A stretch of DNA of 64,000 bases. It comes from Actinospica robiniae DSM 44927 (GTDB lineage Bacteria > Actinomycetota > Actinomycetes > Streptomycetales > Catenulisporaceae). A program made the position numbers and the translations under genes. This document shows positions 47,630-63,349 of this stretch, one piece after another. The DNA is taken from contig NZ_KI632511.1 of assembly GCF_000504285.1 (NCBI RefSeq), positions 3,965,372 to 4,029,371 on the forward strand. The letters run 5' to 3'. Under the pieces are notes generated by a model. That model worked only from the letters and a program-made list of their open reading frames with translations. It was not told where the DNA came from and did no database searches. How positions within the stretch are numbered: the stretch's first letter is position 1; every line of letters starts with the position of its first letter.

Positions 47630-50600
47630 CTACTCCCTCAAGGACAAGGCAATTCGTTTCTTTGCCGCGTCGATCGATACGATCCGACATCGAACCAGCT
47701 GGCCGATCGTGAAAGATGTGAGCGGGTCGGCTGGGCTCGGGATCCGCGATTTATGAACCAGACCCTTGACACCACCAACGTCGACGAATACACCGTATTC
47801 GATGGTTCCGATCACCACTCCGTCCACTTGAGCGCCAACGGCGCAGGCAGACAGGTCCAGCGGCGGGAGCCGCTCGCGGGCTGCGTCCAATCCCGGGTCG
47901 ACAGGCGGTTCTAGCCGAAGCGACAGCGAGACCTTCTCCGTCTCAGCCTCGAGGCTGAGGACGCGAACGGTCACGCGTTGACCGATCCGGAGTATCTTCC
48001 GCGGGTCGATGCGGCCGTTTGCCATCTCCGATTTGTGAACCAACCCTTGCAGCCCGCCAAGGTTCACGAACGCCCCGAAGTCCACCAGGTTCGACACGAT
48101 CGCCGGCCGAGTCTGCATGACGGCGAGTTCGCCGAAAACGATTGGGTCGAGCAAACTCTCTTCAACGGCGGCGCGACCGCTAGTAGTGCCCGGATCGAGC
48201 AGCCAAGCCTCTGCCGAGCGCGTCAGGACGGCGCGCGAGGCCGGATCGGCTGCTTTCAAGCCAAGCGCGACGACATGGGGCCACACGGGATCCTTCAACC
48301 AGCGCTTTCGAGAACACCACTCGACGACCTGCTCGCCTACTGTGGCGACAGATAGGTCGATGTGCCCAGCAGCATCCAGATAACGGAAGCCCCACAACCG
48401 CGAAGACCTAACCCACGAATCGTTCAGACACGTCGCAATGGCCGCCGCCTTTGCCTCCGGCTCGAGCAGCGGTGCCACCGGCTTCCAACACTGTCGCCAG
48501 GTTCTGTTCCTTCTGCTCAGTGGAAGTGCTAGCCATCGGCCGGCGGCAGCCACACCTGCATCGGACAGGCCGTCAGGCATCTCGCTGACTCTGCCTGCGA
48601 CGTGGCCCCAGCTCTGATCGCCCCAGTTCATGGGGTCGGCCAGCCAAGTCTCTGCGAGGCGGTGTAGTTCGGCGAGCCGCTCGTGGTCTGCCAGGTCGGC
48701 CGCCGCGACCAGCACGTACGCCCAGCCTATGTCCGCGCGTGAGCGGGAATCGCTCAGCCAGGTCACAGCGGCGGCGACCAGTTCTGCGGAATGCTCTTTG
48801 CCCAGCGCCCGGAACACGAAGCTCCATCGGCGGCCCACGAAGTTGCGTTCTAGTGCAAGCCAGCCGAGTCCGAGCGCGTAGATGTCAACCGCACCGAGTG
48901 CCTCGGTATCTGACATGGCAACTGCGCTTTCCAGCGCCTTGGAGAACGCAGGGCCGTCTCGATTCACCGGATCGGCGAACCAGGCCCACAGGAATGCTGC
49001 GAGTTGCTCTCTCTCCTGTCCCTTGGTCAGCGGATGCACCCGGTCGAGAACCCATCCCCACCCGGCATTCCCAGGAATGTTCTTAAGCCACTGCAGACCG
49101 AGCTGGCGCAACTCACCCTTCTGTTCCGGTACGGCGTCCATGACTTCCTGGAAGACGCGATTCCACGAGGGGAGCCTCCAGTTGTCCCGGTTCCACAGCC
49201 ACAGCAGTTCGAGCCTGACGAGATCGGCCCGTTCGCGCCCGTCCAGGACCGACAGGAGTCCACCCACGACCTGTGATCTGTCGATCCTGTCGTCGAGTGG
49301 CCTGGTTCGCAGGAACTCCAATCCCGATTGGATCAGCTGATGACGGTCGATTACCAGGTCTGAGCGCATGACCAAGGCGTAGAGATCGCCCCAATCGTCG
49401 ATGTCTTGGAATCTTCCGCGGCCGACGAGCCTGTCGGTCGCGGAAGTCCCGAGAATCCTGCGGTCGAGGTCGGCGTCCACCAGAAGTTCCAGGAGTTGGG
49501 TCCACCCCCGACCCGAACGGTGGGCCGAGGAAGCCAGCCACCGGCCCGCCATCTCGAAGACGAAGGCCTGCTGAGCGCCAGGGGTTCGTTCGATGACCTT
49601 CGTGGCGACGATAGGCCACCGTGGATCTTCCTGCGCGGCCTCGGAGTCGAGCCACTCTTTCGCCAATGCGAGAAGATCGGTCTGGTCCATGCCGTCGGTG
49701 GCCCGTATCAAGATCTGCGCGACGGATCCCCACCGGGGATCGTCCTGGCCGATCCACTCCCGCAGCCACTGCATCCCGATTGCGACGAGTTCATCGCGTT
49801 CAGTGGAGTCGACCACCTTGATGAGGCGTTCCAACGGCCTGTCCCAGTGGCCGAGGAACTGATGCATCGGTTCCCGAACCCACGTGGTCGCCAATGTGGC
49901 AAGCCTTGCGTGCTCTCGAGCGTCCAGATGCTGCATCAGGCCGGTACAGACGTTGATCCAACTGCTCTCTGAGAAATGAGCCTCGTCGAAGACCCAGTCC
50001 GCGATCGCTCCCAGAAGTTCCTCGCGCTCCGCCGCGCCGAGAGTGCTGTAAAGCGCGTCGAAGACGATCGGCCAACCGGGCGAGAACGAGTCTCGTGACT
50101 GCAACCACTGTTTGCCCAGCGTAATAAGTTGAGAGCGCTCGCGCCTCGCCGAGGGCGGCACCTGGTCAAGCCTCCGCCGGAACAGGTGGTGCCACGTGGT
50201 CGTACGACAGGAGGATTCGTCGCTCAGCCATACCAGGCAGGATCGTTCGACTTTTGCAAGCAGTCCGCCCCGCGTCTCTCGCAACAAAGTCTGCGCGACG
50301 CGGCCCCACGCGGGGTTGGCCGCTGAATCTGGACGAACTAGCCACGCTGCCGCGGCTTCCAGTACGCGCTCGCGGGCACGACCGCTGACCCGAGAAAGCT
50401 TCTGATCCAGGACATATCCCCATCCGGGGTTGGCCAGGGTCGTCTCGGATTGCAGCCAGGCCAACGCGATTCGGGCCGCACTGTCGCTCTGGGTCAGGGA
50501 ATCGAGCGCACGATAAGCGACCGCCCACCCTGAGTGCGTCCAATGCTGCGGATCCTCCAACCAGCACGCCAGCGCGTCGAGGTCTTCTCGGCTGCACGTG

Positions 50601-53578
50601 AACGAGGCGACACGAGCCGCGACGGCGCCTGCACCGTAGGAGGACTCGTCATCGGCCCGGATACGGCGGCGCAACGCTTCGAGGAGTTCGTCCGCGTCAG
50701 GATCTGCCGGGCGCAGCGTGTCCAGAAGCGCGTGCGCAGTGAGCTGCCATGTTTCGGGGGCCAGCGACAGATCCTTAATCGCAGCCGATCCAAGGGCCCA
50801 TGGTGTCGGTGTCAGCACGATGCCAGGCATAGCCTGCTCGAGACGGATCCATGCTGGCAAGTCTTCGATGCCGATCCCCGTCGTTGAATGGGCCAGCGAC
50901 CGGTATGCATCCGCGATGGCCTCGGGTAGAAGCGTCGGATCGAGCCTTCCCTGGACCGCCGCTGTATGAGCCCTCGATACAGCGAGCTTGAGCGCCGTCA
51001 GCGGCGCGGTCCTCTCGGCGGAGCTCTCACCCACCAGACCGCACTCGATGATCGCGTCACGCAGAGCACCTGCCGCCTTGTGTGCGTCCCCCTCGCCGAA
51101 CCAACCCTGGAACAGCGCGTCTGCAAGGTGGGGGTGAGCTAGCCACACTCCTCCTCGGCTCGAGTCTGTAGACACGGTGATGTGCTTGTCACCTTTGGTG
51201 AGTTGCGTAAGGACGTCGCGCTCAGCGTCGGTCAGCGCGCGCCGCGACGCGGCCGGCATGCCCACATAAAGGCGGTTGACAGCCAGCAGTTTCGCGATGA
51301 ACGCCGGAACTCGCGACGACTCCTCCATTCCTTCTAGCCGGGCTTTGAATCTCCGCGCGAAACTCTCCAGCGATGCTCCAGTCCCGTACTGGAAGAATCT
51401 CTGCACCATGAGGACATTCGAGGAGGACAGATGTGCCGGCGGCGTCAGATTGGTTCGAGCAGTGAACCAACGCTCGAGCTCATGCGCATGGTCGGCGTCG
51501 AGTCGTTCGTCGATCACCCGGAAGGTAACCTCGACATCGTCGAGGAACTCCAGCCGGAATGCAGTTCTCTGCTCGGTTGGGCCGCAGCTAACGATAACCG
51601 GCAGTTGCCTACCCTCGTTGCGCGCTGTATTCAAGGCACGGATGGCACTTCGCCAATGCTCGCCAGATCGGGCCTGTGCTGCCGGAGAGAACCCGTCATC
51701 GATGACGATGATCGCCCGATCGCCCGGCTCGGCGTTGGCCAAGGTGAACGACACAGCTTCGGGGAGTTCCTCGACATCGTTTCCCAGCCACAGCATCATG
51801 CCACGGTTCGTCTGACGGATCTTGGCCAGTGCCTGAAGCATCAGGACGCTCTTGCCGCAGCCTGACCGGCCCTCGAACCAGTACACCGGCAACTTACGGC
51901 CGATATCGGCCTCAGTGCTCTCAATACTGTCAAGCCATATTTCGAGTTTCTCGACGGCCGGGTCGACCTGCCAGGCTCGGTCCGCGAAGAAGCCATCCGC
52001 GACATGCGACGGCTTCGGTTGATCGCCAGCAAGGTAGTCGCCGTGTGTGATCACACTTGGCGACACAAATTTATCAGTGAGCACGACAATACCCTGGGAA
52101 AGGCGATCCTTCGGCGCACGCAACCGCAGCGCCACCAGGTCGGAGAACAGCTCATCGGCAAGTTCTGCAGGGCTTCCTCCTTCAGCGACGAAGGAGGCGA
52201 GACGCTCGGTCCAGCGATCGATCCACCCCAGCGGATCCCTAACCCGTAGGAGCGGCTCGAGGGCGAGCATCTCCCTTATCTTCGAGCGAGGCGACGGGTC
52301 GGTCGTCAGTCGCAACCGTGCCCTGAACTCAGTCAGCTCGCCGGCGTCGCCGCCATTAGTCGGCTGCCATCTGTCCATCGCCGAGCGGACCGTGCGCAGG
52401 CTCCGCTGGCGGCAGCGAATCTCGAACCGCAGATCGGCCGCGCTGTCGGCCCGCAAGCTCGCCGCCGTCTGCGCGACCGCCCATAGATCCTCAAGCGCGG
52501 TGCGCACTGAATCCCCACGGCCAGTCAGGTTCGTCTGGATAACGAGAGGTCTGCGTGTCTCGTCGGTGAAGTCGATGTCGGATAGCACCTCCGTGAAGGG
52601 GGCGCGGCTCCCGGGTTGCCGGAGCCACGCGGCTATCGCCTGTCCCAGCGCCGAGTGCAGGTGGAAGTCGAAGTCGATCGAGGCCGAGCGGGCGATGTCT
52701 AGCCTCTCTGGAAACCGGGCAGCCCACTCCTCCCGAAGTCGCATAAGATACTGGGACGTGTTGGTGTCCGAGATTTCCGGGTCACTACAACCGACAGAGG
52801 CTGCGACATCCGCAACAAGCTTGAGTATCCGGCCGTAGACCATGTCCTCGCGGCTAGAAGGCTTGCAGATCCGGATGTGGTCGGCGTCTACAGGGATTGG
52901 TTGTACTTTAGGCAGCGCGGGATCGGCCGATCCAGCATCGACGACCTGCACGCCCTTGGTAGGTCTGGTCTCGAAAAACACGAGATGCCGAATCCCCGTC
53001 GCCGATTCATAGACCCAATTCTGGTAGTTTGTCGACAGGTGGCGTAAATGGGCGCTATTCTCTTGCAGGTCCTTTACCGCAGGAGTGCCGCGATAGATCC
53101 TGCCGAGGGCCTCGACCGTCTTCGTCAACCCCGACCCGTTGTGCGGCGTCCCAAGGAAGACGACCGCCTTGGTCATCGCCGCGAACGACGCGAACTCGGT
53201 GTTGCCATACGCCGCATGCAGAAGCGCTTCCTTGACGATCAGCCCACCCATGCTGTGCGTCACAAATACCAGGGGCCGCTCGCCGATATGCTTGACCTGC
53301 AGAGATGCCAGCACATTGACCATCCGGTCCTGCATCGGCATCGCACGACCGCGCCATCCACTTGACCACGCCTCATACCCGACCGACCACACGGCCACGC
53401 CGCTCACGTCTTCGGCCAACCACCTCGGCCAGAAAACGTCCTTACCAGCGGTCCAAGACTTCCTCGGATCGCCATCCAAACCATGGAGAAGCACCACATC
53501 CAGCACAGCATCTTGCGGCACTTCCACCGAGACGACCCTGGCCAACTCGACTCCCGCCACCCGGGCCACACGCGCCAT
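47630..53578 (-). CDS. Giant hydrolase-STAND NTPase-repeat-S1 protein
   Basis: A 1982-residue single ORF from ATG 53578, the only sensible start, since a stop lies just upstream. Domains: (1) residues about 1-260, alpha/beta-hydrolase of PGAP1/SERAC1/DUF676 type, with LHGLDGDPRKSW, nucleophile Ser109 in THSMGG, FLGTPHNGSG and His234 in VDADHIRICKP; (2) about 280-540, unknown alpha/beta region; (3) about 540-850, STAND-like P-loop NTPase, Walker A GRSGCGKS (about 570) and Walker B AIIVIDDG (about 622); (4) about 1000-1810, around 20 degenerate 36-41-residue repeats of the form xxWL...(8-12)...W (for example AWLQSETTLANPGWGYVL); (5) two S1 RNA-binding domains, about 1821-1889 and 1915-1981. No membrane segment. 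Architecture matches predicted biological-conflict proteins: effector, switch and sensor in one chain. Function is inference. Confidence 0.85.
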   Translation of the reverse strand: MARVARVAGVELARVVSVEVPQDAVLDVVLLHGLDGDPRKSWTAGKDVFWPRWLAEDVSGVAVWSVGYEAWSSGWRGRAMPMQDRMVNVLASLQVKHIGERPLVFVTHSMGGLIVKEALLHAAYGNTEFASFAAMTKAVVFLGTPHNGSGLTKTVEALGRIYRGTPAVKDLQENSAHLRHLSTNYQNWVYESATGIRHLVFFETRPTKGVQVVDAGSADPALPKVQPIPVDADHIRICKPSSREDMVYGRILKLVADVAASVGCSDPEISDTNTSQYLMRLREEWAARFPERLDIARSASIDFDFHLHSALGQAIAAWLRQPGSRAPFTEVLSDIDFTDETRRPLVIQTNLTGRGDSVRTALEDLWAVAQTAASLRADSAADLRFEIRCRQRSLRTVRSAMDRWQPTNGGDAGELTEFRARLRLTTDPSPRSKIREMLALEPLLRVRDPLGWIDRWTERLASFVAEGGSPAELADELFSDLVALRLRAPKDRLSQGIVVLTDKFVSPSVITHGDYLAGDQPKPSHVADGFFADRAWQVDPAVEKLEIWLDSIESTEADIGRKLPVYWFEGRSGCGKSVLMLQALAKIRQTNRGMMLWLGNDVEELPEAVSFTLANAEPGDRAIIVIDDGFSPAAQARSGEHWRSAIRALNTARNEGRQLPVIVSCGPTEQRTAFRLEFLDDVEVTFRVIDERLDADHAHELERWFTARTNLTPPAHLSSSNVLMVQRFFQYGTGASLESFARRFKARLEGMEESSRVPAFIAKLLAVNRLYVGMPAASRRALTDAERDVLTQLTKGDKHITVSTDSSRGGVWLAHPHLADALFQGWFGEGDAHKAAGALRDAIIECGLVGESSAERTAPLTALKLAVSRAHTAAVQGRLDPTLLPEAIADAYRSLAHSTTGIGIEDLPAWIRLEQAMPGIVLTPTPWALGSAAIKDLSLAPETWQLTAHALLDTLRPADPDADELLEALRRRIRADDESSYGAGAVAARVASFTCSREDLDALACWLEDPQHWTHSGWAVAYRALDSLTQSDSAARIALAWLQSETTLANPGWGYVLDQKLSRVSGRARERVLEAAAAWLVRPDSAANPAWGRVAQTLLRETRGGLLAKVERSCLVWLSDESSCRTTTWHHLFRRRLDQVPPSARRERSQLITLGKQWLQSRDSFSPGWPIVFDALYSTLGAAEREELLGAIADWVFDEAHFSESSWINVCTGLMQHLDAREHARLATLATTWVREPMHQFLGHWDRPLERLIKVVDSTERDELVAIGMQWLREWIGQDDPRWGSVAQILIRATDGMDQTDLLALAKEWLDSEAAQEDPRWPIVATKVIERTPGAQQAFVFEMAGRWLASSAHRSGRGWTQLLELLVDADLDRRILGTSATDRLVGRGRFQDIDDWGDLYALVMRSDLVIDRHQLIQSGLEFLRTRPLDDRIDRSQVVGGLLSVLDGRERADLVRLELLWLWNRDNWRLPSWNRVFQEVMDAVPEQKGELRQLGLQWLKNIPGNAGWGWVLDRVHPLTKGQEREQLAAFLWAWFADPVNRDGPAFSKALESAVAMSDTEALGAVDIYALGLGWLALERNFVGRRWSFVFRALGKEHSAELVAAAVTWLSDSRSRADIGWAYVLVAAADLADHERLAELHRLAETWLADPMNWGDQSWGHVAGRVSEMPDGLSDAGVAAAGRWLALPLSRRNRTWRQCWKPVAPLLEPEAKAAAIATCLNDSWVRSSRLWGFRYLDAAGHIDLSVATVGEQVVEWCSRKRWLKDPVWPHVVALGLKAADPASRAVLTRSAEAWLLDPGTTSGRAAVEESLLDPIVFGELAVMQTRPAIVSNLVDFGAFVNLGGLQGLVHKSEMANGRIDPRKILRIGQRVTVRVLSLEAETEKVSLSLRLEPPVDPGLDAARERLPPLDLSACAVGAQVDGVVIGTIEYGVFVDVGGVKGLVHKSRIPSPADPLTSFTIGQLVRCRIVSIDAAKKRIALSLRE

Positions 53579-54239: not shown

Positions 54240-55227
54240 TCTCGCTGAGAACCCCTCGATCAGGTGGGGCCCGTACTGGATCTCGCGCAGGCCACGACGG
54301 ACGGCTTGAACCAGGTGGTCGGGGTCGGTGAACGCGGTGTTGGCAAGCTTGCGGCGTAGCAGTGACCAGATCCCCTCGAGCGGGCTAAGTTCTAGGCAGT
54401 AGGCCGGGAGCTGGCAAACGGAGTGAGCCAGTCGTATGCGTCGACGAACTCGCGCAGGCCTATGGCCAGGTGGGTATTGAGATTTCCTAAACTACGATGA
54501 TCGGGCCGGCAAGTCGGGCATGTGCGGTGATCAGCAGGTCTCGGTGGTCACGCCAGTCGAAGCTCTTGCGTCCGTGCGTTCGGTCGCGGGTCGGCCGGTA
54601 GATCAGCCGGGGTCGCTCGCCCGGCTTGTAGCAGGTGCGCGCGGCGACCGACAGCCGCCGTCGGGAGCGGCCGCGGACCCGGATCACCGGGGCCAGACCG
54701 CGGCGCGACCAGGTGCGCGAGGTGGGCTGCGACATCGAGAAGCCGGCCTCGTCTTCGAAGACGAGCCAGCCCTCGAGCGCCGCCCGGGTTCTTCCGCCTG
54801 CGGCCAGGTCTCCTTCACCCATGCGCCCGCCGCTTGATCGTCGCGTTCCATCGCGCGTCGCCGGGACCTGATGAGACCAGCCCCGGCGACGCAAGAGCGC
54901 GGCCAAGCCTTGGGGCGTATACGACTTGTGGAACCGGCGGCCTATCAACGTCGCGATCCGGGCCAGGATCCAGGTCTGATCCTCCCAGCCGTGCGCGGCA
55001 GGGCTCTTGTCGAGCTCCAGCTCAAGCACAGCGAACAGCTCTTCGCTCAGGATCGGGCGCGAGACCGGTGCCTTCGAGACCAGCCCGGCCTCGCCACCCG
55101 CAGACCAGGCCGTGCGCCAGCGTTGAACCGAGCGCACGTGTATCCGCAGTTCCTTCGCGATGAGCGCGCTGTCCCGGCCTGCCGCGAAACGCTCGGCCGC
55201 GTCCATCCGCAGCCGCTCGCGAGACAC
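54240..55227 (-). pseudogene. IS630-family transposase, multiply frameshifted
   Basis: Starts MSRERLRMDAAERFAAGRDS (55227) with helix-turn-helix ALIAKELRIHVRSVQRWR. A mid-section reads correctly only in a second frame (MERDDQAAGAWVKETWP) before returning to frame one at LEGWLVFEDEAGFSMSQPTS (first Asp). After AGPIIVV a stop interrupts; the tail (NLNTHLAIGLREFVDAYDWL, then LLRRKL-type remnants to about 54240) continues across stops and frames. A pair of compensating indels plus a nonsense change make it inactive. Confidence 0.75.
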
Positions 55228-55311
55228 CTGCCGCTCGGGCGTGAGCCCACCGCTCTTCTACAGCACCTCCACCAAGCCGGCCGGAGCCGCGAACGGCTCC
55301 CGAAGGGCTCA

Positions 55312-55620
55312 CGACTGGAGACCTATAACAAGTCGGTCACCGTCAAAGAGGATTACGGCACCGAGAAGGACCAGCAGGTCCAGGTCCTGGAGTTGTGCCG
55401 GAACGTCGGGAACCCGCAGCTGATCGAGATCGTGTTCACCCTCGGCCTTCCCGGCGACGATCCCCCCGCCTGGGCCGCGGTCGCCCAGCAGCACCGCTGC
55501 GCCGCGGCCCACTTCGCTGACCCGCTCATCCTGTCTGGCGTCCTGTACCTGGCCAAGCAGCTCGGCGAGAGCGTCCTGCCGGCCCACGAGGTCGATCCCA
55601 TCGACGAGGCCAAAGACTGA
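55312..55620 (+). CDS. C-terminal part of an unknown protein
   Basis: About 100 protein-like codons (NKSVTVKEDYGTEKDQQVQV, then ELCRNVGNPQLIEIVFTLGL, FADPLILSGVLYLAKQLGES) ending at TGA 55620. Upstream of 55312 the frame runs into IS630 material and is no longer protein-like, so the start has been lost. The fragment is helical, soluble and well biased at third positions. Family not recognised. The next fragment follows in the same frame. Confidence 0.45.
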   Translation, partial: RLETYNKSVTVKEDYGTEKDQQVQVLELCRNVGNPQLIEIVFTLGLPGDDPPAWAAVAQQHRCAAAHFADPLILSGVLYLAKQLGESVLPAHEVDPIDEAKD

Positions 55621-55671
55621 CGGACCCATGCCAGCCCGAACTCCGGCTCCGCCCGCCGCGGCCCGCACCCC

Positions 55672-55990
55672 GCAACCCCACAGCAGCCGCTCAACCCCCG
55701 ACAGCTGAGCTACCTCGAAGTCATCTACGAACTCGACCAGCAAGCCGAACGCGACCAGGCGCTCCGATGGCGCCAGAACCTGCAGCGGGAACCGGCCGAC
55801 GTCTGGCGCTGGTTGCCCTACGACGCGCCCCACACGAGCGAGCACACGCCCCTCGCGCGTCTCCTCGACCACGGCGCCGGCACCACCCTCGCCGCCCTGC
55901 GGCGGCGCGGACTGCTCCTGCAGCGCCGCGCCGTGCTCGAGACCGCGGGCCTTCCGACGCAACTGCAGATTTGGCTCGCCCGCCGGCACC
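55672..55990 (+). CDS. N-terminal part of an unknown protein, cut by IS5
   Basis: In-frame after the preceding gene's stop: QPLNPRQLSYLEVIYELDQQ, then RWRQNLQREPADVWRWLPYD, LARLLDHGAGTTLAALRRRG and LETAGLPTQLQIWLARRHLD. Coding texture is good to about 55985, where antisense IS5 sequence takes over. No ATG is clear; a start near 55670 on a non-ATG codon or a lost start is possible. A winged-helix character is suggested by the GTTLAALRRRGLLLQR stretch, but this is a guess. Confidence 0.4.
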
Positions 55991-56369
55991 TCGACCTGCT
56001 CCCGCCAGCCGCGCCGGGCACCGGCGGCGTGCTGGTGCGCGCGAGCGATAGTGGAGTCGACCGAGACATCCCACGTGATCAGCTCGGCAGCATCCGCCCG
56101 AGCCTGGAGCGCCGTGACGATCGAGCGCCACACCCCGTCGAGCTGCCAGCGACGAAAGAGCCAGTACACTCACTGCCACGGCCCGTACCATGGCGGCACA
56201 TCCGCCACGGCACCCCGGCCCGCACCCGCCACCGAATCCCGTCGATCAACCGCCGCTTCGCATGGATCGGCGGACAACCTGGCTTCTTACCGACCGGCAA
56301 CAGCGGTTCGAGCGCCGCCCATTCGGCATCGGTCAGGTCGTGACGAGCGAAAGCGGGTATCGTCTCCAC
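55991..56369 (-). pseudogene. IS5-family transposase N-terminus, frameshifted
   Basis: From about GTG 56369: VETIPAFARHDLTDAEWAAL, then EPLLPVGKKPGCPPIHAKRR and RWRVRAGVPWR. A frameshift follows and the other frame continues VYWLFRRWQLDGVWRSIVTA then ELITWDVSVDSTIARAHQHA (first Asp). The 3' portion is absent. The 220 bp beyond (56415-56636) hold nothing I can support. Confidence 0.7.
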
Positions 56370-56636
56370 GCTAGGTCTCCGTGTGGTGAGAGTCTTCTTG
56401 GTCGATGAACTCACCTACCGGAGACCTCGTGCATGCGAGCATTGCGACATGCCGCAGCTATCAGATCGTGACCAGCACCGTCACACGCCAAGCCCGCTTC
56501 TCAAACGTGCCCGAACGGGCACCGTGAGGCGCGGCACCAACCATCCTCGAGCAACGCAAGAGCGCTCATGCCGGGTTGGCGCGCCGACCGGTGCGCACGA
56601 GGTTACGGGTGGTACGGAAGACTCGGTTATCCGGTA

Positions 56637-57890
56637 TCACGTCGCGGGAGCCGACATACTGATCACGCCCTGCGCGATGAGCTTCTTCGCTTGGGGCGAG
56701 CTGGCTCCCGATCCGTCCAGGTAGAGATCTCCTTCATTGCAATAGGTTGTTATGTCGACCCCCTTCGGCACGGTGGGCCCGAGGCAGCTCGGTATATCCA
56801 AGGTCAGCTTCCCCATCGAGCCGAGAGGCTGCTCGGCGGTTTCGACGGTCGTGCTCTCCTGCTGCCAGGTGAAACCCTCCAGGACCCACGGAGTCGACTC
56901 GCGGATATCGATCATTTTGGAAGACTCGTCACGCTTGGTGTTGTCGCATCTCCATGATGCGAACGTGGCGTGGAGTTTGCCGTCCGAGCCCCACCAGATC
57001 GCCTGGGACGCCATGCCGCCACGCGATGCCGTGACGTCCGCTCGGGAGACGATCGCAGACGTGTCCGTCGCGGCGAAACGGACCGAGACGGGGTCCACAA
57101 GGTAGATCTCCATCTCGGAGGCGCACGCGCCCGGGTCGGTCGAGCTCATGATGGCCATCTCGGGTCCGTGATAGGCGGTCGTGGGCGAGGCGGCGGCCCA
57201 GGTGTAGCCGTCCTGGTAAGGCCCCAGGTCGCGTATTCCCATATTGTTTTGGGACAGAAGCTGAAGATCCCCGCCTGAACTGCTCGTGGTGCCGTACGCC
57301 AGCGTGAGGCCGTCGACACTGGCGAGGAACTGCGTCCATCCGACGGTGTTGACGAACGGGAGATCGAAGGTCTTCGGGGCCGCGCTTGCGCCCAGATTGT
57401 ATTGCTCGACTTCGTTCTGGTCGTTCGAACTGCCGGCCTTGACCAGGACGGTGTCGGCGCTCGGCGATGTGACGTCCCAGCAGTAGGGGCAGGGTATCGA
57501 GTGCGCGGCCCCGGTCTGGGCGTCTATGTAGATCAGGGCGTGGTCGGTCGGTTCGTAGTTGCCGTTCAGATGCGAGATGAAGACCACGAAGCGGCCGCTC
57601 GCGGTCCAGATCACGTGGTTGTTGTAAGGGTTGAAGGGGTCGAAGACGTTCGCGTACTTCGCTATCTGCCGGGTGCCTTTCATCACGACGATGTCGCGGA
57701 ACTGCGTGTACGCGAATGCCGGGTCCTCCTCGACCCCTGTTCCAGCGGGCGCGGCGCTGCGGGTGTCAGCCGAGGCCGTGCGCGCGGCGGGCGCGTCCCG
57801 GTGAGGCAATAGCCTCGGGCCGATGAGAATGCAGGCGGCTACCAGAGCGCACAGGGTCACTGAGAGAACGACGAGTCTGCGGAGCGGCAT
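56637..57890 (-). CDS. Exported beta-propeller-like protein
   Basis: A 417-residue protein from ATG 57890. The N-terminal hydrophobic segment (LVVLSVTLCALVAACILIGP) acts as signal anchor; no lipobox follows. The mature part has TolB/WD-like blades: HVIWTASGRFVVFISHLNG, DHALIYIDAQTGAAHSIPCP, DGLTLAYGTTSSSGGDLQLL, SQAIWWGSDGKLHATFASW. It is the third gene of a tight minus-strand set (Trypco1-like, protease, this), 14 bp after the protease stop. It may bind the protease's partner or substrate outside the cell; this is inferred from linkage. Confidence 0.7.
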   Translation of the reverse strand: MPLRRLVVLSVTLCALVAACILIGPRLLPHRDAPAARTASADTRSAAPAGTGVEEDPAFAYTQFRDIVVMKGTRQIAKYANVFDPFNPYNNHVIWTASGRFVVFISHLNGNYEPTDHALIYIDAQTGAAHSIPCPYCWDVTSPSADTVLVKAGSSNDQNEVEQYNLGASAAPKTFDLPFVNTVGWTQFLASVDGLTLAYGTTSSSGGDLQLLSQNNMGIRDLGPYQDGYTWAAASPTTAYHGPEMAIMSSTDPGACASEMEIYLVDPVSVRFAATDTSAIVSRADVTASRGGMASQAIWWGSDGKLHATFASWRCDNTKRDESSKMIDIRESTPWVLEGFTWQQESTTVETAEQPLGSMGKLTLDIPSCLGPTVPKGVDITTYCNEGDLYLDGSGASSPQAKKLIAQGVISMSAPAT

Positions 57891-57904
57891 CTTTCCCTCT
57901 TCGG

Positions 57905-59392
57905 CTAGTTCGAGTAGGTTGCCGGGTCGACCTGGGTCCAGGCGGGTCGTTGCTGTCGGCTGACATAGACGACCTGGTATCCGGCATAGGGCGCATTGAC
58001 GGAGCGGGTGGGCGGCATGGCCGTGACGCGGAACGGCCGACCGTTATCGTCGATGTCCTGCCAGAACGGGCCCCGGGCGGTCGAGACGAACACGCGCAGC
58101 GTGAAGGTGCACGAGTACTGCTTCGTGTAAGCACCGACGGTGAGGCCTCTGCTTTCGCCCGGATCCAGCGTGATCGTGTGTGCGGCGAAGTAGTTGGTGC
58201 CGAGCGGCTCGGAGGAAAACATGTCCTGCGACATGGGGTTCGGGCCGTCGAGGTTGAACGCGATCTCGACGTTGTCGCCCGTTCCCTGCGTGTACCCTGA
58301 GAACAGCGTTCCCTTGAGGGGCGCGGAGCACGATTTGAGGACGCTCATGCCCGTCACACTCACCTGGGCGTTGGTCGTGTTCCGTAGGTCCATGGTCGTG
58401 TAGCCGAAGTCGATGGCGGCGCCGTTCATATCGTGGTACCACGGGCCGTATTTTCCTGAGTTCGCCACGGTGACCGTGTTGAACGTCTGCAGCTGCGAGA
58501 TGCTCATCGGCAGCGCAGCGCCGAGCGCGAAGGAGCCGTCGCCCAGGCTGGACTCGATGTCCGCGACGTTCTGCACGGACAGCGGGAGAGCGTTGGAGGG
58601 TGCGGCGATCGGGCTGGCGGCGGGATTGGTCACGCCGGTAGCGGCGTGACCGTCCCAGGAGGGGCGTAGTGCGAAGGCGAGGCCGGCGACCAGGGCGATG
58701 GCGATTATGAGAACCAGCACTGCCGTCCGAGGCTTGACCTGGCGGCCTATGGGCTTCGACAGCTTGGGTGTGCCCGCTCCCACGCGCTCGCCCAGGTCTC
58801 GTAGCGCTTCGGTGCGCGCTGCCCAGGCGGCATCGCGCAGCCGTCCGTCCCCGCTCGCATAGCGCTCGAGGACGATGCCCAGCAGCGTGTGGTCGGAGCG
58901 CAGACAGACGGGCGCTCCGCTCATGCCCGGAGTCACGTCCTGGGAGTTGAACCGGCCGAGGGAAAGGCCGTCTCGCTGCGTGAGACCGGCCCAACTGCCA
59001 GGGCTCTCGAGGTAGCGGTACTCGTGCTCCTCCTCGACATGCGCGCTCACTCCGACCACGACGATCGATGTTCCCAACGGCACGGTGTCGGTCAGGGCCA
59101 TAGCGGGAACCGATGCTCCCAGCGGCGTGCGGGTGTGCAGCACGGCCAAGTCGTTGAGGTCGTCGATCGCTATCACGGTGCAGGAGATCGCGTCGCCGCC
59201 ACTCAGCGGGTCGACAGTAAGGACCTGCCCTTCGGCGAGACCACCCAGCGCGTGCTTCGCGGTGGCCAGATATCCGAGGGCGAACTGGAAACACGTCGCA
59301 TCCGGGCGCCCCTGTGCATCGAGGACTCGCCCCAGGTACGCGGGCACTCGCCGCGCCGGGGCGGGGCGCAGCCACATCGCCGCCCGCCTCAT
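57905..59392 (-). CDS. Membrane-anchored trypsin-like serine protease
   Basis: A 495-residue protein. I place the start at ATG 59392, whose ATGA overlaps the Trypco1-like gene's stop; a longer frame goes to 59458. Catalytic triad: His47 in TAKHALGG, Asp81 in DLNDLAVLHT, Ser158 in TPGMSGAPVCL. The protease domain covers about residues 15-190. A transmembrane helix (VLVLIIAIALVAGLAFAL, about 223-242) comes next, then a large C-terminal domain (about 250-490) with repeated beta segments (YFAAHTITLDPGESRGLTVG). No signal peptide precedes the protease domain, so the protease lies in the cytosol and the C-terminal domain outside. Fits the trypsin/Trypco conflict systems of actinobacteria. Confidence 0.85.
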   Translation of the reverse strand: MRRAAMWLRPAPARRVPAYLGRVLDAQGRPDATCFQFALGYLATAKHALGGLAEGQVLTVDPLSGGDAISCTVIAIDDLNDLAVLHTRTPLGASVPAMALTDTVPLGTSIVVVGVSAHVEEEHEYRYLESPGSWAGLTQRDGLSLGRFNSQDVTPGMSGAPVCLRSDHTLLGIVLERYASGDGRLRDAAWAARTEALRDLGERVGAGTPKLSKPIGRQVKPRTAVLVLIIAIALVAGLAFALRPSWDGHAATGVTNPAASPIAAPSNALPLSVQNVADIESSLGDGSFALGAALPMSISQLQTFNTVTVANSGKYGPWYHDMNGAAIDFGYTTMDLRNTTNAQVSVTGMSVLKSCSAPLKGTLFSGYTQGTGDNVEIAFNLDGPNPMSQDMFSSEPLGTNYFAAHTITLDPGESRGLTVGAYTKQYSCTFTLRVFVSTARGPFWQDIDDNGRPFRVTAMPPTRSVNAPYAGYQVVYVSRQQRPAWTQVDPATYSN

Positions 59393-59763
59393 TCGCCGGC
59401 AGAGGGCAGCGGCGAGGGGCCTTGCGGCCCTTGGTTCTCTGCCTGCTGATGAGGCCACGCGTACTTCATGGACACGACGAAGTTCGAGCCAGACTGACCG
59501 CTGGCGATCCTTGCCGAACCCGTGACCGATAGCTCTATGCCGAATTGGACGACGACTTCGGCCGGGCGCTTGTCCGGTTCAAGAGCCTCGATAGCAGACG
59601 CGAACTCGGTGGCGGCGTTCAGTACCGTCTGACGCACCTGAGCCATCGCTTCGGTGGCCTTGACGGCCATGCGTTGCCCGACGCTGACCTGCTCCGAGTG
59701 TCCAGCACGGCCGACCGATATCTCGATCGTTCCATTTCCGGCGGCCGAAGTGATTTCAGGCAT
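59389..59763 (-). CDS. Trypsin-co-occurring domain (Trypco1-like) protein
   Basis: A 124-residue protein from ATG 59763, with GGAGAGG just upstream. The core reads AVKATEAMAQVRQTVLNAAT, then RPAEVVVQFGIELSVTGSAR, then NFVVSMKYAW. This matches the Trypco1/CU044_2847-type fold: a single alpha+beta domain with a conserved V-V-FGIELS strand and a final N-F-V strand, which occurs next to trypsin-like proteases in predicted conflict systems. It is first in the operon and its stop overlaps the protease start by 4 bp. It is proposed to hold or target the protease; mechanism unproven. Confidence 0.75.
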   Translation of the reverse strand: MPEITSAAGNGTIEISVGRAGHSEQVSVGQRMAVKATEAMAQVRQTVLNAATEFASAIEALEPDKRPAEVVVQFGIELSVTGSARIASGQSGSNFVVSMKYAWPHQQAENQGPQGPSPLPSAGE

Positions 59764-60339: not shown

Positions 60340-61020
60340 GTGCCTGTGGACGATGAGGTGGACCGGTACGCCGACGCAGTTCGGATTCTCCTGCTGATCG
60401 CGGCAGTCGCCGAGACGCTCGACGCAGGCGCCCTGGCTGCAGCACCAGCGAACACGGTAGCGGTACTGCGCTCCGAAAGCAGGCTGCAGAAGCTCGACTT
60501 CTGGCTGCGCAATCCGGACTACCTGGCGGACGAGCTTCTCAACGACTACGAACGCTCCCACGAGCAGATCCTGCTGGACATCGCGGGCGACATCCTCGAC
60601 TCGGACGAGCCGGAGGTCTGCGCGATCCCGATGATCCGCTATCTGTTCGGCGCTTTCGAACGTCTCGATCGAGCCCTGAGCATGCTGGCCGCACCCCGCT
60701 TGGTGATCACGCGGGCGCGCTTGAGTGCCGGCGGCAACATCGTGCAAGCCAACTACTTCCTGACCGAGAAGGGGCAGGAGACGGCTGACAAGGCCACGCA
60801 CTTGTACCCGGAGTTGGCCTGGTACACCGAGCGGGCACAGTTGGTACGCGCATTGGCCGAAGCAACGGGCCATACCGGCCTGGCGTTGCGAAAGCGTCAG
60901 TACCTGCAGCGCGACTACGCCCAGACACCCTTGGGCGAGATCATCCCGTCCATCGCCAACCGCACCCGCGAGCGGCTGGCTACGTTGCGCGAGAGCGCGT
61001 CCGAGGGGGTCTCTGCATGA
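60340..61020 (+). CDS. ABC-three-component-like middle component
   Basis: A 226-residue protein starting GTG at 60340. The section VRILLLIAAVAETLDAG, then RLQKLDFWLRNPDYLADELL is the small helical core expected of ABC-3C middle components (an LDFLLR-P-type motif). The remainder (DIAGDILDSDEPEVCAIPMI then GGNIVQANYFLTEKGQETAD) fits a winged-helix C-terminal region. Its stop overlaps the start of the ATPase gene by 4 bp (ATGA, 61017-61020), so the two are coupled. The family assignment is by motif and context, not by search. Confidence 0.55.
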   Translation: MPVDDEVDRYADAVRILLLIAAVAETLDAGALAAAPANTVAVLRSESRLQKLDFWLRNPDYLADELLNDYERSHEQILLDIAGDILDSDEPEVCAIPMIRYLFGAFERLDRALSMLAAPRLVITRARLSAGGNIVQANYFLTEKGQETADKATHLYPELAWYTERAQLVRALAEATGHTGLALRKRQYLQRDYAQTPLGEIIPSIANRTRERLATLRESASEGVSA

Positions 61021-61771
61021 GCTCCGAGCTTGCACTAGTGGATCTCGCGGTTCCCTCAGAGAGCCAGCTGCATCTGCGAATCGCTTCGCGGATCGCAGGG
61101 CTGGAATCGGCCGACGTGGCGAAGGTGTTGCACTCCCGCGAGATCGAACTGACCCGGCCGCTTCCGATCGACCGGAGCCTGCTCGTACGCCGACTCTATT
61201 GCGACGGTTCGAAGACCGGTACCGACGCCAACGACGGCGCGTTCACGTTCGACATGCAGCTGGACAGCGGACCATGGGTCATCTCCAGCACCATCAACTC
61301 GGCTGGCAAGTCGAGCTTGCTGTGGGCGCTGAGCTTCGCGCTACGCGGCGAGGGTTTCGACAACTTCTGCCGGCCCGAGACGGTCGGCTGGTTCCACTAT
61401 GTCCGCGCCGACATCGAGGTGGGCGGCGTCGCCGCTTCGGTGCGCCTCGCCTTCGACCGCCCGGGCCACCCGAACGCCACGCTGTTGGTCGGAGAGTCGA
61501 TCGAGGAACTGCTCGCGCTCGACGGGCGCGACCAGAACGGCGTGGGCGTTCGCGTCGCCGCCACGGCAGGACCTGATGACGTCAAGTCACTGATAAGCCA
61601 GTTCATGATGAAGCAGCTCAGCCTCCAGCCTGTGGCAATGTGGGTAGCCGAGCCGAACGCACCGAAGAACGAGGACGACAGCCGGGACAGCAAGCAGCAG
61701 GTTCACGGCTGGCCCAGCTTCTTCTATGCGATCGCTCTGAACTCCGCGAGCGACAGCATCTTGCTGGGCCC

Positions 61772-61781
61772 ATCCCTGATC
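61772..61781. repeat. 10-bp target-site duplication of the IS4 insertion, left copy
   Basis: ATCCCTGATC at 61772-61781 is exactly repeated at 63350-63359. Length of 10 bp is typical of IS4-family target duplications. Confidence 0.9.
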
Positions 61782-63349
61782 CAATGCCACGTAGCCTGGG
61801 TTGATCATGTGTGTGGCCTGGGTGTTGGGGGGTGGTGTCGTAGTCTTGGTTCGTGTCGGTGGACTCTGGCGTGGATCGCGGGCGTGTGGTGATGGATCAG
61901 GTTTCTCTCGGGGTGCTGGTCGAGGCGGTGCCGCGGTTCAAGGTGGATCAGGCCTTGAACGACGAGAGGATCAGGGCTTTGCGTTCGGATGGGAAGCTGC
62001 CGCCGCATGTGACGGCGTATCTGACGATGGCGATGGCGCTGTTCGCGCAGGATGCCGCGGAGGAGGTCGCCACGAGGGTGACCGGGTCGCTCGACGCGTT
62101 CGGGGTGTGGGACGCGTCCTGGGGCGTGCCGACCTCCTCCGGGATCACGCAGGCGCGTAAACGGTTGGGCCGTGATGTGCTGCGGCGGGTGTTCGGGTAC
62201 TGTGCCGAGCCGGTCGCGGTTCAGGATGAGACCCGGGGCGCGTTCGCGTGCGGGCTGCGGGTGATGGCGATCGACGGGTTCGCGATGGACGTGCCCGACA
62301 CGCCGGGCAACGTCGCGGAGTTCGGGTACTCCACGACCGGGGGCAATCCGTCGGCGTTCCCGAAGGTGCGGGTGGTCGGGATCACCGAGTGCGCCAGCCA
62401 CTGTTTCGTCGACGCGCGTATCGGTCCGTACACCACCGGGGAGCAGAGTCTGGCCGCGCCGCTGCTCGCGCGTCTGGACCGGTCTTGGCTGCTCACGGCG
62501 GACCGCGGGTTCTACAGCTTCCCGGCCTTCTCGGACGCGGCCGAGACCGGGGCCGGGCTGCTGTGGCGGGTCAAGGCCGACCTGCGCCTGCCACCCCTGC
62601 GGGTACTCGAGGACGGCACGTACGTGTCCGTGGTGATCGACCGCGAGATCCGCGGCGCACGGCGCGAGGCGATCGTGCGGGCCGCCGAAGCCGGAGAAGA
62701 GCTCGACCCGCACCAGGCCCGCCGGGTACGGGTGCTCCAGTACGACGTGCCCGACCGCGCCGGGCCCGCCGGCACGGAACTCATCTGCCTGATCACGAAC
62801 CTGCTCGACCCGCAGAGCGCGCCGGCCGAGACCCTCGCGTACTGCTACCACCAGCGGTGGGAACAGGAGAGCGCGCACGACCAGCTCGAGACCGACCTGC
62901 GCGGCTCCGGGCGCGTCCTACGCTCGAAGCTACCCGACCTCGTCTACCAGGAGGTGTGGGCCTACCTCCTGGTCCACTACGCGATCAACGCGCTGATCTG
63001 CCGGGCCGCGACCGGCGCGGACATCGACCCGGACCGCGTCTCCTTCGTCAAAGCCGTGCGCATCGCGCGCCGTACCGCCACCGGTACCGCGCGCTTTTCC
63101 CCCTGAACAGATGAAAGCCCCCGCCGCCCGCGCCGCCGCGCAACTGACCGCACCCGCCGCACTCAACCCGCCCCGTCGCGAACGCACCTACCCCCGCGCC
63201 GTCAAACGCATCCGACACAACCCACACCGGGTGAAAAAGGCCGCTGATACCGGCATACGGCACCCTGACCCGCCCACCATCCGGATCTTCCGCACCAACC
63301 CACCCGCCACCAGCGGCCGAACAAGATCAACATAAGCTACGTGGCATTG
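61782..63349 (+). mobile_element. IS4-family insertion sequence, intact
   Basis: A 1568-bp element. The left end CAATGCCACGTAGCCTGGG and the right end, reversed, CAATGCCACGTAGCTTATG continue into about 28-bp imperfect inverted repeats (14 bp perfect at the tip). A 10-bp direct repeat flanks it. It contains one intact transposase. The perfect target duplication and intact gene mean the insertion is recent. Confidence 0.92.
61853..63106 (+). CDS. IS4-family transposase
   Basis: A 417-residue protein from GTG 61853. DDE residues: Asp in RVMAIDGFAMDVPDT, Asp in WLLTADRGFYSFPAF, and Glu in YHQRWEQESAHDQLET, the YREK-type signature of IS4. N-terminal helices (ALNDERIRALRSDGKLPPHV) precede the core, as in actinobacterial members. 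No frameshift or stop. It lies centrally in the element at 61782-63349. Confidence 0.9.
   Translation: MSVDSGVDRGRVVMDQVSLGVLVEAVPRFKVDQALNDERIRALRSDGKLPPHVTAYLTMAMALFAQDAAEEVATRVTGSLDAFGVWDASWGVPTSSGITQARKRLGRDVLRRVFGYCAEPVAVQDETRGAFACGLRVMAIDGFAMDVPDTPGNVAEFGYSTTGGNPSAFPKVRVVGITECASHCFVDARIGPYTTGEQSLAAPLLARLDRSWLLTADRGFYSFPAFSDAAETGAGLLWRVKADLRLPPLRVLEDGTYVSVVIDREIRGARREAIVRAAEAGEELDPHQARRVRVLQYDVPDRAGPAGTELICLITNLLDPQSAPAETLAYCYHQRWEQESAHDQLETDLRGSGRVLRSKLPDLVYQEVWAYLLVHYAINALICRAATGADIDPDRVSFVKAVRIARRTATGTARFSP

What the first reader, a model, noticed from the sequence alone, without database searches (positions are those of the whole stretch)
56637..59763. Trypco1-like/trypsin protease/propeller operon divergent from the ABC-3C-like operon
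Three genes with 4-bp overlap and 14-bp spacing: a Trypco1-like protein, a protease with a full His-Asp-Ser triad and a single membrane helix, and an exported propeller-like protein. Trypsin plus Trypco pairs are known parts of predicted conflict systems. The addition of a membrane-tethered protease with a large outer domain and an outside propeller is unusual and suggests a trans-envelope signal.
Basis: partly seen in the sequence, partly recalled or inferred. Interest (0 to 1): 0.7.

Follow-up and report, generated by a model that had tools for sequence, protein, structure and literature searches.

The report
Membrane protease with outer propeller partner
An actinobacterium carries a small operon that seems to wire an outside-facing sensor, built from a membrane-anchored domain and an exported propeller-like protein, to a protease inside the cell, and the outer domain recurs in other actinobacteria attached to quite different inner parts.

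Summary
The three genes are real: Trypco1 (PF19493, 47.8 bits), a Trypsin_2 protease with His47/Asp81/Ser158 and one membrane helix (aa 223-243, N-inside by charge), and an exported all-beta protein. The full set was found in no other genome searched (one congener unresolved). It joins two separately conserved modules. One is the known Trypco1-trypsin pair. The other is new here: an unnamed ectodomain (ECD, P0002 aa 245-495, no Pfam match) beside an unnamed exported propeller-like family. These two are adjacent in four genomes: this one, Streptomyces microflavus, Kutzneria sp. 744 and G003 of the same family. Four of six P0003-family proteins found lie beside an ECD gene; four of 20 strong ECD loci examined have such a neighbour. 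Elsewhere the ECD or its core is tethered to HTH_31, EAD1, DUF1877 or unnamed domains, so the cytosolic part is swapped. I read it as a trans-envelope receptor whose output here is a Trypco1-partnered protease. Ligand, substrate and purpose (defence or regulation) are unknown. Both structure models are low-confidence. The divergent neighbour is a broken Lamassu locus, not ABC-3C.

The parts
59389..59763 (-). Trypco1 protein, 124 aa (domain aa 18-101 = 59461-59712)
   Evidence: PF19493 47.8 bits; NF041216 44.3 bits; found again by whole-genome search
57905..59392 (-). Bitopic protein: predicted cytosolic trypsin-like protease, one membrane helix, C-terminal ectodomain (ECD)
   Evidence: overlaps gene 1 by 4 bp
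58874..59296 (-). Trypsin_2 domain, aa 33-173, with H47/D81/S158
   Evidence: PF13365 38.7 bits; residues read
58664..58726 (-). Membrane helix, aa 223-243, positive side N-terminal
57908..58660 (-). Ectodomain (ECD), aa 245-495; Cys355 and Cys428 are invariant in the 11-row alignment
   Evidence: no Pfam match
56637..57890 (-). Exported propeller-like protein P0003, 417 aa, hydrophobic N-terminus about aa 5-25
   Evidence: P0003-family genes adjoin ECD genes in four genomes

Best explanation
A trans-envelope protease receptor. Outside the membrane, the exported propeller-like protein and the ECD form the sensing unit. The ECD is tied by one helix to a cytosolic trypsin-like protease that works with Trypco1. 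Binding of something outside (phage, rival, envelope damage) is proposed to cluster or rearrange the ECD and switch on the protease, which then cleaves a cytosolic target, possibly Trypco1 itself or a protein it presents. SHOWN by sequence: the operon, the domains, the active-site residues, one helix with its charge bias, recurrence of the ECD-partner adjacency, and swapping of the cytosolic domain. INFERRED: physical ECD-propeller contact, the propeller fold, direction of signalling, protease activity, a role in conflict. Substrate and ligand are unknown.
For: Trypco1 and Trypsin_2 above curated cut-offs, adjacent, triad kept. Trypco1-trypsin pairs recur: in this genome beside a Trypsin_2-nSTAND1-WD40 protein, and in G011, G964 and G997. 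N-inside helix. ECD gene adjacent to a P0003-family gene in four genomes: window; S. microflavus (4-bp overlap); Kutzneria sp. 744 (410-aa partner at 251 bits against a profile that did not contain it); G003 (convergent, 4-bp overlap). These homologies hold when the tested member is left out of the profile. Cytosolic partners of the ECD or its core elsewhere: EAD1 (46.0 bits), HTH_31 and DUF1877, domains with no Pfam name.
Against: The trypsin-ECD fusion was found only in this genome. 16 of 20 strong ECD loci have no P0003-family neighbour. Two of six P0003-family proteins have no ECD in the 9- and 14-kb stretches read. Of four Trypco1 matches in this genome, I saw a trypsin gene beside two; the other two loci showed none that I recognised and were not scanned. 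The trypsin homologue in G001 has no Trypco1 gene called beside it. The two ECD cysteines are missing in the G003 partner and in L087. EAD1 was not found in this genome, but that search had no ringing control. Both structure models are low-confidence. No substrate gene is evident.
Confidence: 0.45

Rival explanations
1. Same trans-envelope architecture, but the role is ordinary signalling in development or envelope stress, with the protease in place of the DNA-binding output that related ECD proteins carry.
For: The ECD core is common in the order: 138 of 293 genomes match at E<=1e-10, own genome counted. The one such Streptomyces-group protein with this core that I scanned and that carries a DNA-binding domain has HTH_31, then a helix, then the core. 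That suits regulation more than defence.
Against: Trypco1-trypsin and EAD1 are, by published prediction, parts of conflict systems (PMC7159879, passages). The P0003 family and the fusion are rare, which suits an accessory gene more than a core regulator.
Confidence: 0.27
2. A lineage-specific fusion in a region of insertion sequences, now decaying or without a selected function.
For: No second genome with the fusion; transposase-like frames lie on both sides (my reading of the translations, not scanned); the neighbouring Lamassu genes are broken.
Against: All three reading frames are intact, genes 2 and 3 have third-codon GC of 0.82-0.83 (gene 1 was only scored as an upstream-extended frame, 0.66), catalytic residues are kept and so are the two ECD cysteines.
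Confidence: 0.15
3. The operon is an effector cassette of the divergent Lamassu system.
For: 576 bp apart and divergent; trypsin-like proteases occur fused to LmuA in some Lamassu systems (PMC12799240, passages).
Against: This Lamassu has its own LmuA-like frames (300.2 and 194.6 bits); P0002 matches no Lmu model; no LmuA fusion, and the upstream gene is Trypco1, not an MBL nuclease. Neighbours at the other P0003-linked loci were not scanned with Lamassu models.
Confidence: 0.04
4. The protease domain is outside and matures or sheds the exported partner.
For: An exported partner is encoded next to the protease.
Against: Charge bias puts the N-terminus inside and no comparable hydrophobic segment precedes the protease domain. 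No hydrophobic segment was called in the Trypco1 frame. P0003-family proteins also occur beside ECD proteins that are too short to hold a protease.
Confidence: 0.05

Closest known systems
Trypco1-trypsin pairs of MoxR-vWA/VMAP conflict systems (Kaur et al. 2020, PMC7159879; passages read)
   Same: Trypco1 gene beside a trypsin-like peptidase gene
   Different: Here the peptidase is fused to a membrane helix and ectodomain, with an exported partner; no MoxR, vWA or VMAP match among the six window proteins scanned
Trypsin_2-nSTAND1-WD40 protein with Trypco1 neighbour, same genome (L023)
   Same: Trypco1 neighbour, N-terminal protease, C-terminal propeller; hydrophobic segments called at about aa 34, 684, 754 and 1354, the second between NTPase and propeller
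   Different: NTPase and WD40 propeller are in the same chain; in the window there is no NTPase and the propeller-like protein is separate; its topology was not tested
EACC1-caspase membrane-associated two-gene system (PMC7159879, passages)
   Same: Single-helix membrane component coupled to a peptidase output, actinobacterial
   Different: Caspase rather than trypsin, and the peptidase is a separate protein; EACC1 was not looked for by profile here
Nuclease-protease pairs in Hachiman, AVAST and Lamassu (PMC12799240; abstract, outline and passages)
   Same: Trypsin-like protease as intracellular executioner, encoded with an upstream partner
   Different: Upstream partner is an MBL nuclease there, Trypco1 here; the word 'membrane' does not occur in that text
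Streptomyces umbrella toxins, UmbA (PMC13274773, passages)
   Same: Combines a trypsin-like domain with, in some members, a propeller lectin
   Different: There both are in one chain of a released particle and the trypsin-like domain binds UmbB; here the protease is predicted intracellular and in a different chain from the propeller-like protein

Membership tests
Trypco1-trypsin conflict pair | Trypco1 domain | tested here: met
   PF19493 47.8 bits, cut-off 24.6
Trypco1-trypsin conflict pair | Neighbouring trypsin-like peptidase with catalytic triad | tested here: met
   PF13365 38.7 bits; H47, D81, S158
Trypco1-trypsin conflict pair | MoxR, vWA and VMAP core components nearby | tested here: inconclusive
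   None among the six window proteins scanned; the rest of the window was not scanned and VMAP, vWA and MoxR were not searched in the genome
ECD-propeller pair (defined here) | TM-anchored ECD gene adjacent to a P0003-family exported gene | tested here: met
   Window plus three other genomes
Beta-propeller proteins | Propeller fold of P0003 | tested here: inconclusive
   No Pfam match; one PDB sequence match, E 0.049, to an alpha/beta hydrolase chain; low-confidence model whose 50 listed PDB matches are propeller-bearing by title and recall, TM 0.2-0.3
Lamassu (divergent neighbour) | LmuA, LmuB and LmuC homologues | tested here: met
   LmuC 261.7, LmuB 174.2 and 339.5, LmuA 300.2 and 194.6 bits; LmuB and LmuA each lie in two frames
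   No dedicated ABC-3C profile was run; Lamassu models match strongly instead
Nuclease-protease pair of Tuck et al. | MBL-fold nuclease gene directly upstream of the protease | tested here: not met
   The upstream gene matches Trypco1 only
Umbrella toxin UmbA | Trypsin-like domain and lectin in one exported chain | tested here: not met
   The protease chain has an internal helix and N-inside charge, and the propeller-like protein is a separate chain

The most novel reading that the evidence does not exclude
The ECD, with or without its exported propeller, is a general receptor cassette of actinobacteria into which different cytosolic outputs (HTH, EAD1 adaptor, DUF1877, trypsin with Trypco1, unnamed domains) are plugged, in the way death receptors and Toll-like receptors are built in animals. 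The window shows a version that turns an outside signal directly into intracellular proteolysis without an NTPase.
Probability: 0.3. Interest if true: 0.82.

Novelty: new variant of a known kind. Interest (0 to 1): 0.58.

Why it matters
The conflict systems in which Trypco1 was described are NTP-dependent and centred on MoxR, vWA and VMAP proteins (PMC7159879, passages). A membrane receptor that feeds an outside signal straight to a Trypco1-type protease would show how such cells could sense threats before entry. It also gives two unnamed protein families, the ECD and its exported partner, a first proposed role. The ECD core is common (138 of 293 genomes of the order), so learning its ligand would bear on many uncharacterised Streptomyces proteins.

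Tried and rejected
Rejected: a conserved three-gene operon. ABC-3C as the neighbour (Lamassu models match instead). The operon as Lamassu effector (own LmuA-like frames). An umbrella-toxin UmbA. An extracellular protease.

Led nowhere: P0002 as a single query found no relative in genome contigs. P0003 had no match among plasmids; P0002 had one, ECD only, on a Gordonia plasmid. PDB sequence searches gave one weak match each: 15.9 bits, E 0.049 for the P0003 family and 20.2 bits, E 0.0033 for the ECD. The ECD model (pLDDT 53) had no PDB match at E<=0.001, only weak beta-sandwich matches; Pfam hints such as CBM_4_9 (18.9 bits, cut-off 25.9) stayed below cut-off. EAD1 search of the own genome was silent, as were its controls. 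Literature searches on Trypco1, Trypco, CU044_2847, Lamassu with trypsin, and combinations of propeller, transmembrane, trypsin-like and related terms: none of the listed titles or of the passages I opened in five papers describes this arrangement. The library is open-access PMC only and I read no paper whole, so this is not proof of absence.

Caveats: gene calls in fetched loci come from a simple GC-position script of mine, so starts are approximate. Seven ECD sequences built profile A1 and score high on it by construction; L015 among them, without which it still scores 30.9 bits, E 7e-8 for 7000 proteins, against 7.7 bits for the best of 500 shuffles. The loci were picked for an ECD or P0003-family match, not sampled at random. 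Pfam scans of relatives covered representatives only.
Full report
What is there. Genes 1 and 2 share ATGA and genes 2 and 3 are 14 bp apart. Trypco1 scores 47.8 bits against PF19493 (cut-off 24.6), the protease 38.7 bits against Trypsin_2 (cut-off 27.6), and the third has no Pfam match at E<=0.1. H47, D81 and S158 are in place. The protease chain has one strong hydrophobic segment, aa 223-243, with five K/R in the 15 residues before it and none in the 15 after. This predicts a cytosolic protease and an outside C-terminal half, aa 245-495, which I call the ECD.

Two modules, not one operon. P0002 as a query matched 7 of 60 relatives (E<=1e-10, own genome counted) and 10 of 394 genomes of the class (E<=1e-12, own genome counted). 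Only the own genome matched over the whole length; the others matched the protease part or the ECD part (one, in G997, reached aa 268 but carries no ECD). P0003 matched 2 of 60 relatives, own counted. One case is unresolved: congener G001 has a protease homologue (42-43 percent identity over aa 9-190) cut by its contig end, and an ECD protein on another contig.

Module one is the Trypco1-trypsin pair. It recurs in G011 (Trypco1 beside an 894-aa trypsin-domain protein), in G964 and G997 (Trypco1 about 550-610 bp downstream of a trypsin gene), and in the own genome beside a 1437-aa Trypsin_2-nSTAND1-WD40 protein. The own genome has four Trypco1 matches, the window's included; beside two of them I saw a trypsin gene, beside the other two none that I recognised, and those neighbours were not scanned. 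Trypco1 was named for its co-occurrence with trypsin-like peptidases in predicted conflict systems (PMC7159879, passages).

Module two is the ECD and the exported protein. The ECD has no Pfam match in P0002, and the Kutzneria and S. microflavus ECD and partner proteins have no NCBIfam match. A P0003 relative was found in G003 by protein search, and the gene beside it turned out to encode a TM-ECD protein: a profile without that protein gives it 30.9 bits, E 7e-8 for 7000 proteins, against 7.7 bits for the best of 500 shuffles. Conversely, ECD searches led to S. microflavus JCM 4496 (L102, the same contig as G220 by length and sequence) and Kutzneria sp. 744 (L101). The genes beside those ECDs proved to be P0003 relatives: 30.8 percent identity, BLAST E 3e-44, and 251 bits against a profile without it. 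In S. microflavus the genes overlap by 4 bp in the same order as in the window; in G003 they are convergent and overlap by 4 bp. Leaving each of the five members of the propeller alignment out in turn, the profile of the rest recovers it: E 1e-44 to 5e-79 for the four ECD-linked members and 5e-14 for the fifth.

Counts. The P0003-family profile rings in 3 of 293 genomes of the order (own counted) and 3 of 394 of the class (own counted). With Kutzneria this makes six proteins; four lie next to an ECD gene and two (G774, G878) show no ECD in the 9-kb and 14-kb stretches read. From the ECD side, 20 distinct loci score at least 100 bits after two duplicates were dropped, and 4 of 20 have a P0003-family neighbour. 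Not counted: in G012 the ECD gene overlaps a 434-aa exported lipoprotein with a weak P0003-profile match (15.2 bits), and in G017 and G018 it lies beside a different exported protein of about 575 aa. The linkage is real but not universal.

Swapped cytosolic parts. N-terminal to the helix, ECD proteins or proteins with the ECD core carry EAD1 in G789 (PF19955, 46.0 bits, cut-off 24.2), HTH_31 in G014 (48.5 bits, cut-off 27) and DUF1877 in G126 (62.9 bits, cut-off 22). Seven others scanned have no Pfam domain there above cut-off. Many are short, with only a helix before the ECD. The core is common in the order (138 of 293 genomes at E<=1e-10, own counted) and rarer in the phylum sample (15 of 396 at E<=1e-6, own counted). 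Two cysteines are invariant over the 11-row alignment, fitting an oxidised outside domain, but they are missing in the G003 protein and in L087.

Structure. AlphaFold2 with three and four rows gave low-confidence models: P0003 pLDDT 49.5, pTM 0.41; ECD pLDDT 53.2, pTM 0.47. P0003 is all-beta. The 50 PDB rows listed of 769 are, by title and my recall, propeller-bearing proteins (prolyl-oligopeptidase family, methylamine dehydrogenase, TolB, WD40 proteins), E from 3e-6, but with TM-scores of 0.2-0.3. I take the propeller as likely, not shown. The ECD resembles small beta-sandwich domains only weakly.

Mechanism. My reading is a receptor: the exported protein and ECD sense outside, the helix transmits, and the Trypco1-partnered protease acts inside. 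Contact, direction, activity, substrate and ligand are inferred or unknown. The defence reading rests on the company kept by Trypco1 and EAD1 in published predictions (PMC7159879 and PMC8195603, passages). The HTH-bearing relatives are the best argument for the rival, ordinary regulation.

Neighbour. The divergent genes at 60340-61020 and 61017-61892 match LmuC (261.7 bits) and the N-terminal part of LmuB (174.2 bits). A transposase-like frame (my reading, not scanned) lies at 61853-63106. Beyond it lie the rest of LmuB (339.5 bits) and, past the window, two LmuA-matching frames (300.2 and 194.6 bits). So it is a Lamassu locus with LmuB, and apparently LmuA, in pieces.

Verdict. What is new is the pairing of the ECD with an exported partner, the swapped cytosolic outputs, and the fusion here to a Trypco1-type protease.

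Noticed in passing
60340-61892 and 63381 to beyond the window end: Lamassu locus: LmuC intact, LmuB split around a transposase-like frame (61853-63106), LmuA matched by two separate frames past the window.
   Followed up: partly
47630-53578 (-): 1982-aa protein: alpha/beta-hydrolase-like N-terminus (PADLOC DUF626_VIII, 87.9 bits), a STAND-NTPase-like region below the Pfam cut-off (nSTAND_NTPase5, 30.3 of 34 bits), a long stretch that looks Trp-rich and repetitive, and two C-terminal S1 RNA-binding domains. An unusual pairing worth its own look.
   Followed up: no
L023:2460-7263 (own genome C1:1030000-1044000): Second Trypco1 locus: Trypco1 overlapping a Trypsin_2-nSTAND1-WD40 chain with a hydrophobic segment between NTPase and WD40 part, perhaps a one-chain analogue of the window's layout.
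   Followed up: partly
L088-L093: Six order-level loci in which a TM-ECD gene (75-82 bits) overlaps or adjoins a multi-helix membrane protein gene and faces a large convergent gene of 861-1282 aa; a second conserved ECD neighbourhood.
   Followed up: no
L017, L018: Two genomes carry, side by side, an unnamed-domain-TM-ECD protein, a different exported protein of about 575 aa and a third TM protein with a weak ECD match (42-46 bits).
   Followed up: partly
54487-56414 (-): Frames that read like transposases just downstream of the operon, suggesting insertion sequences; not scanned.
   Followed up: no
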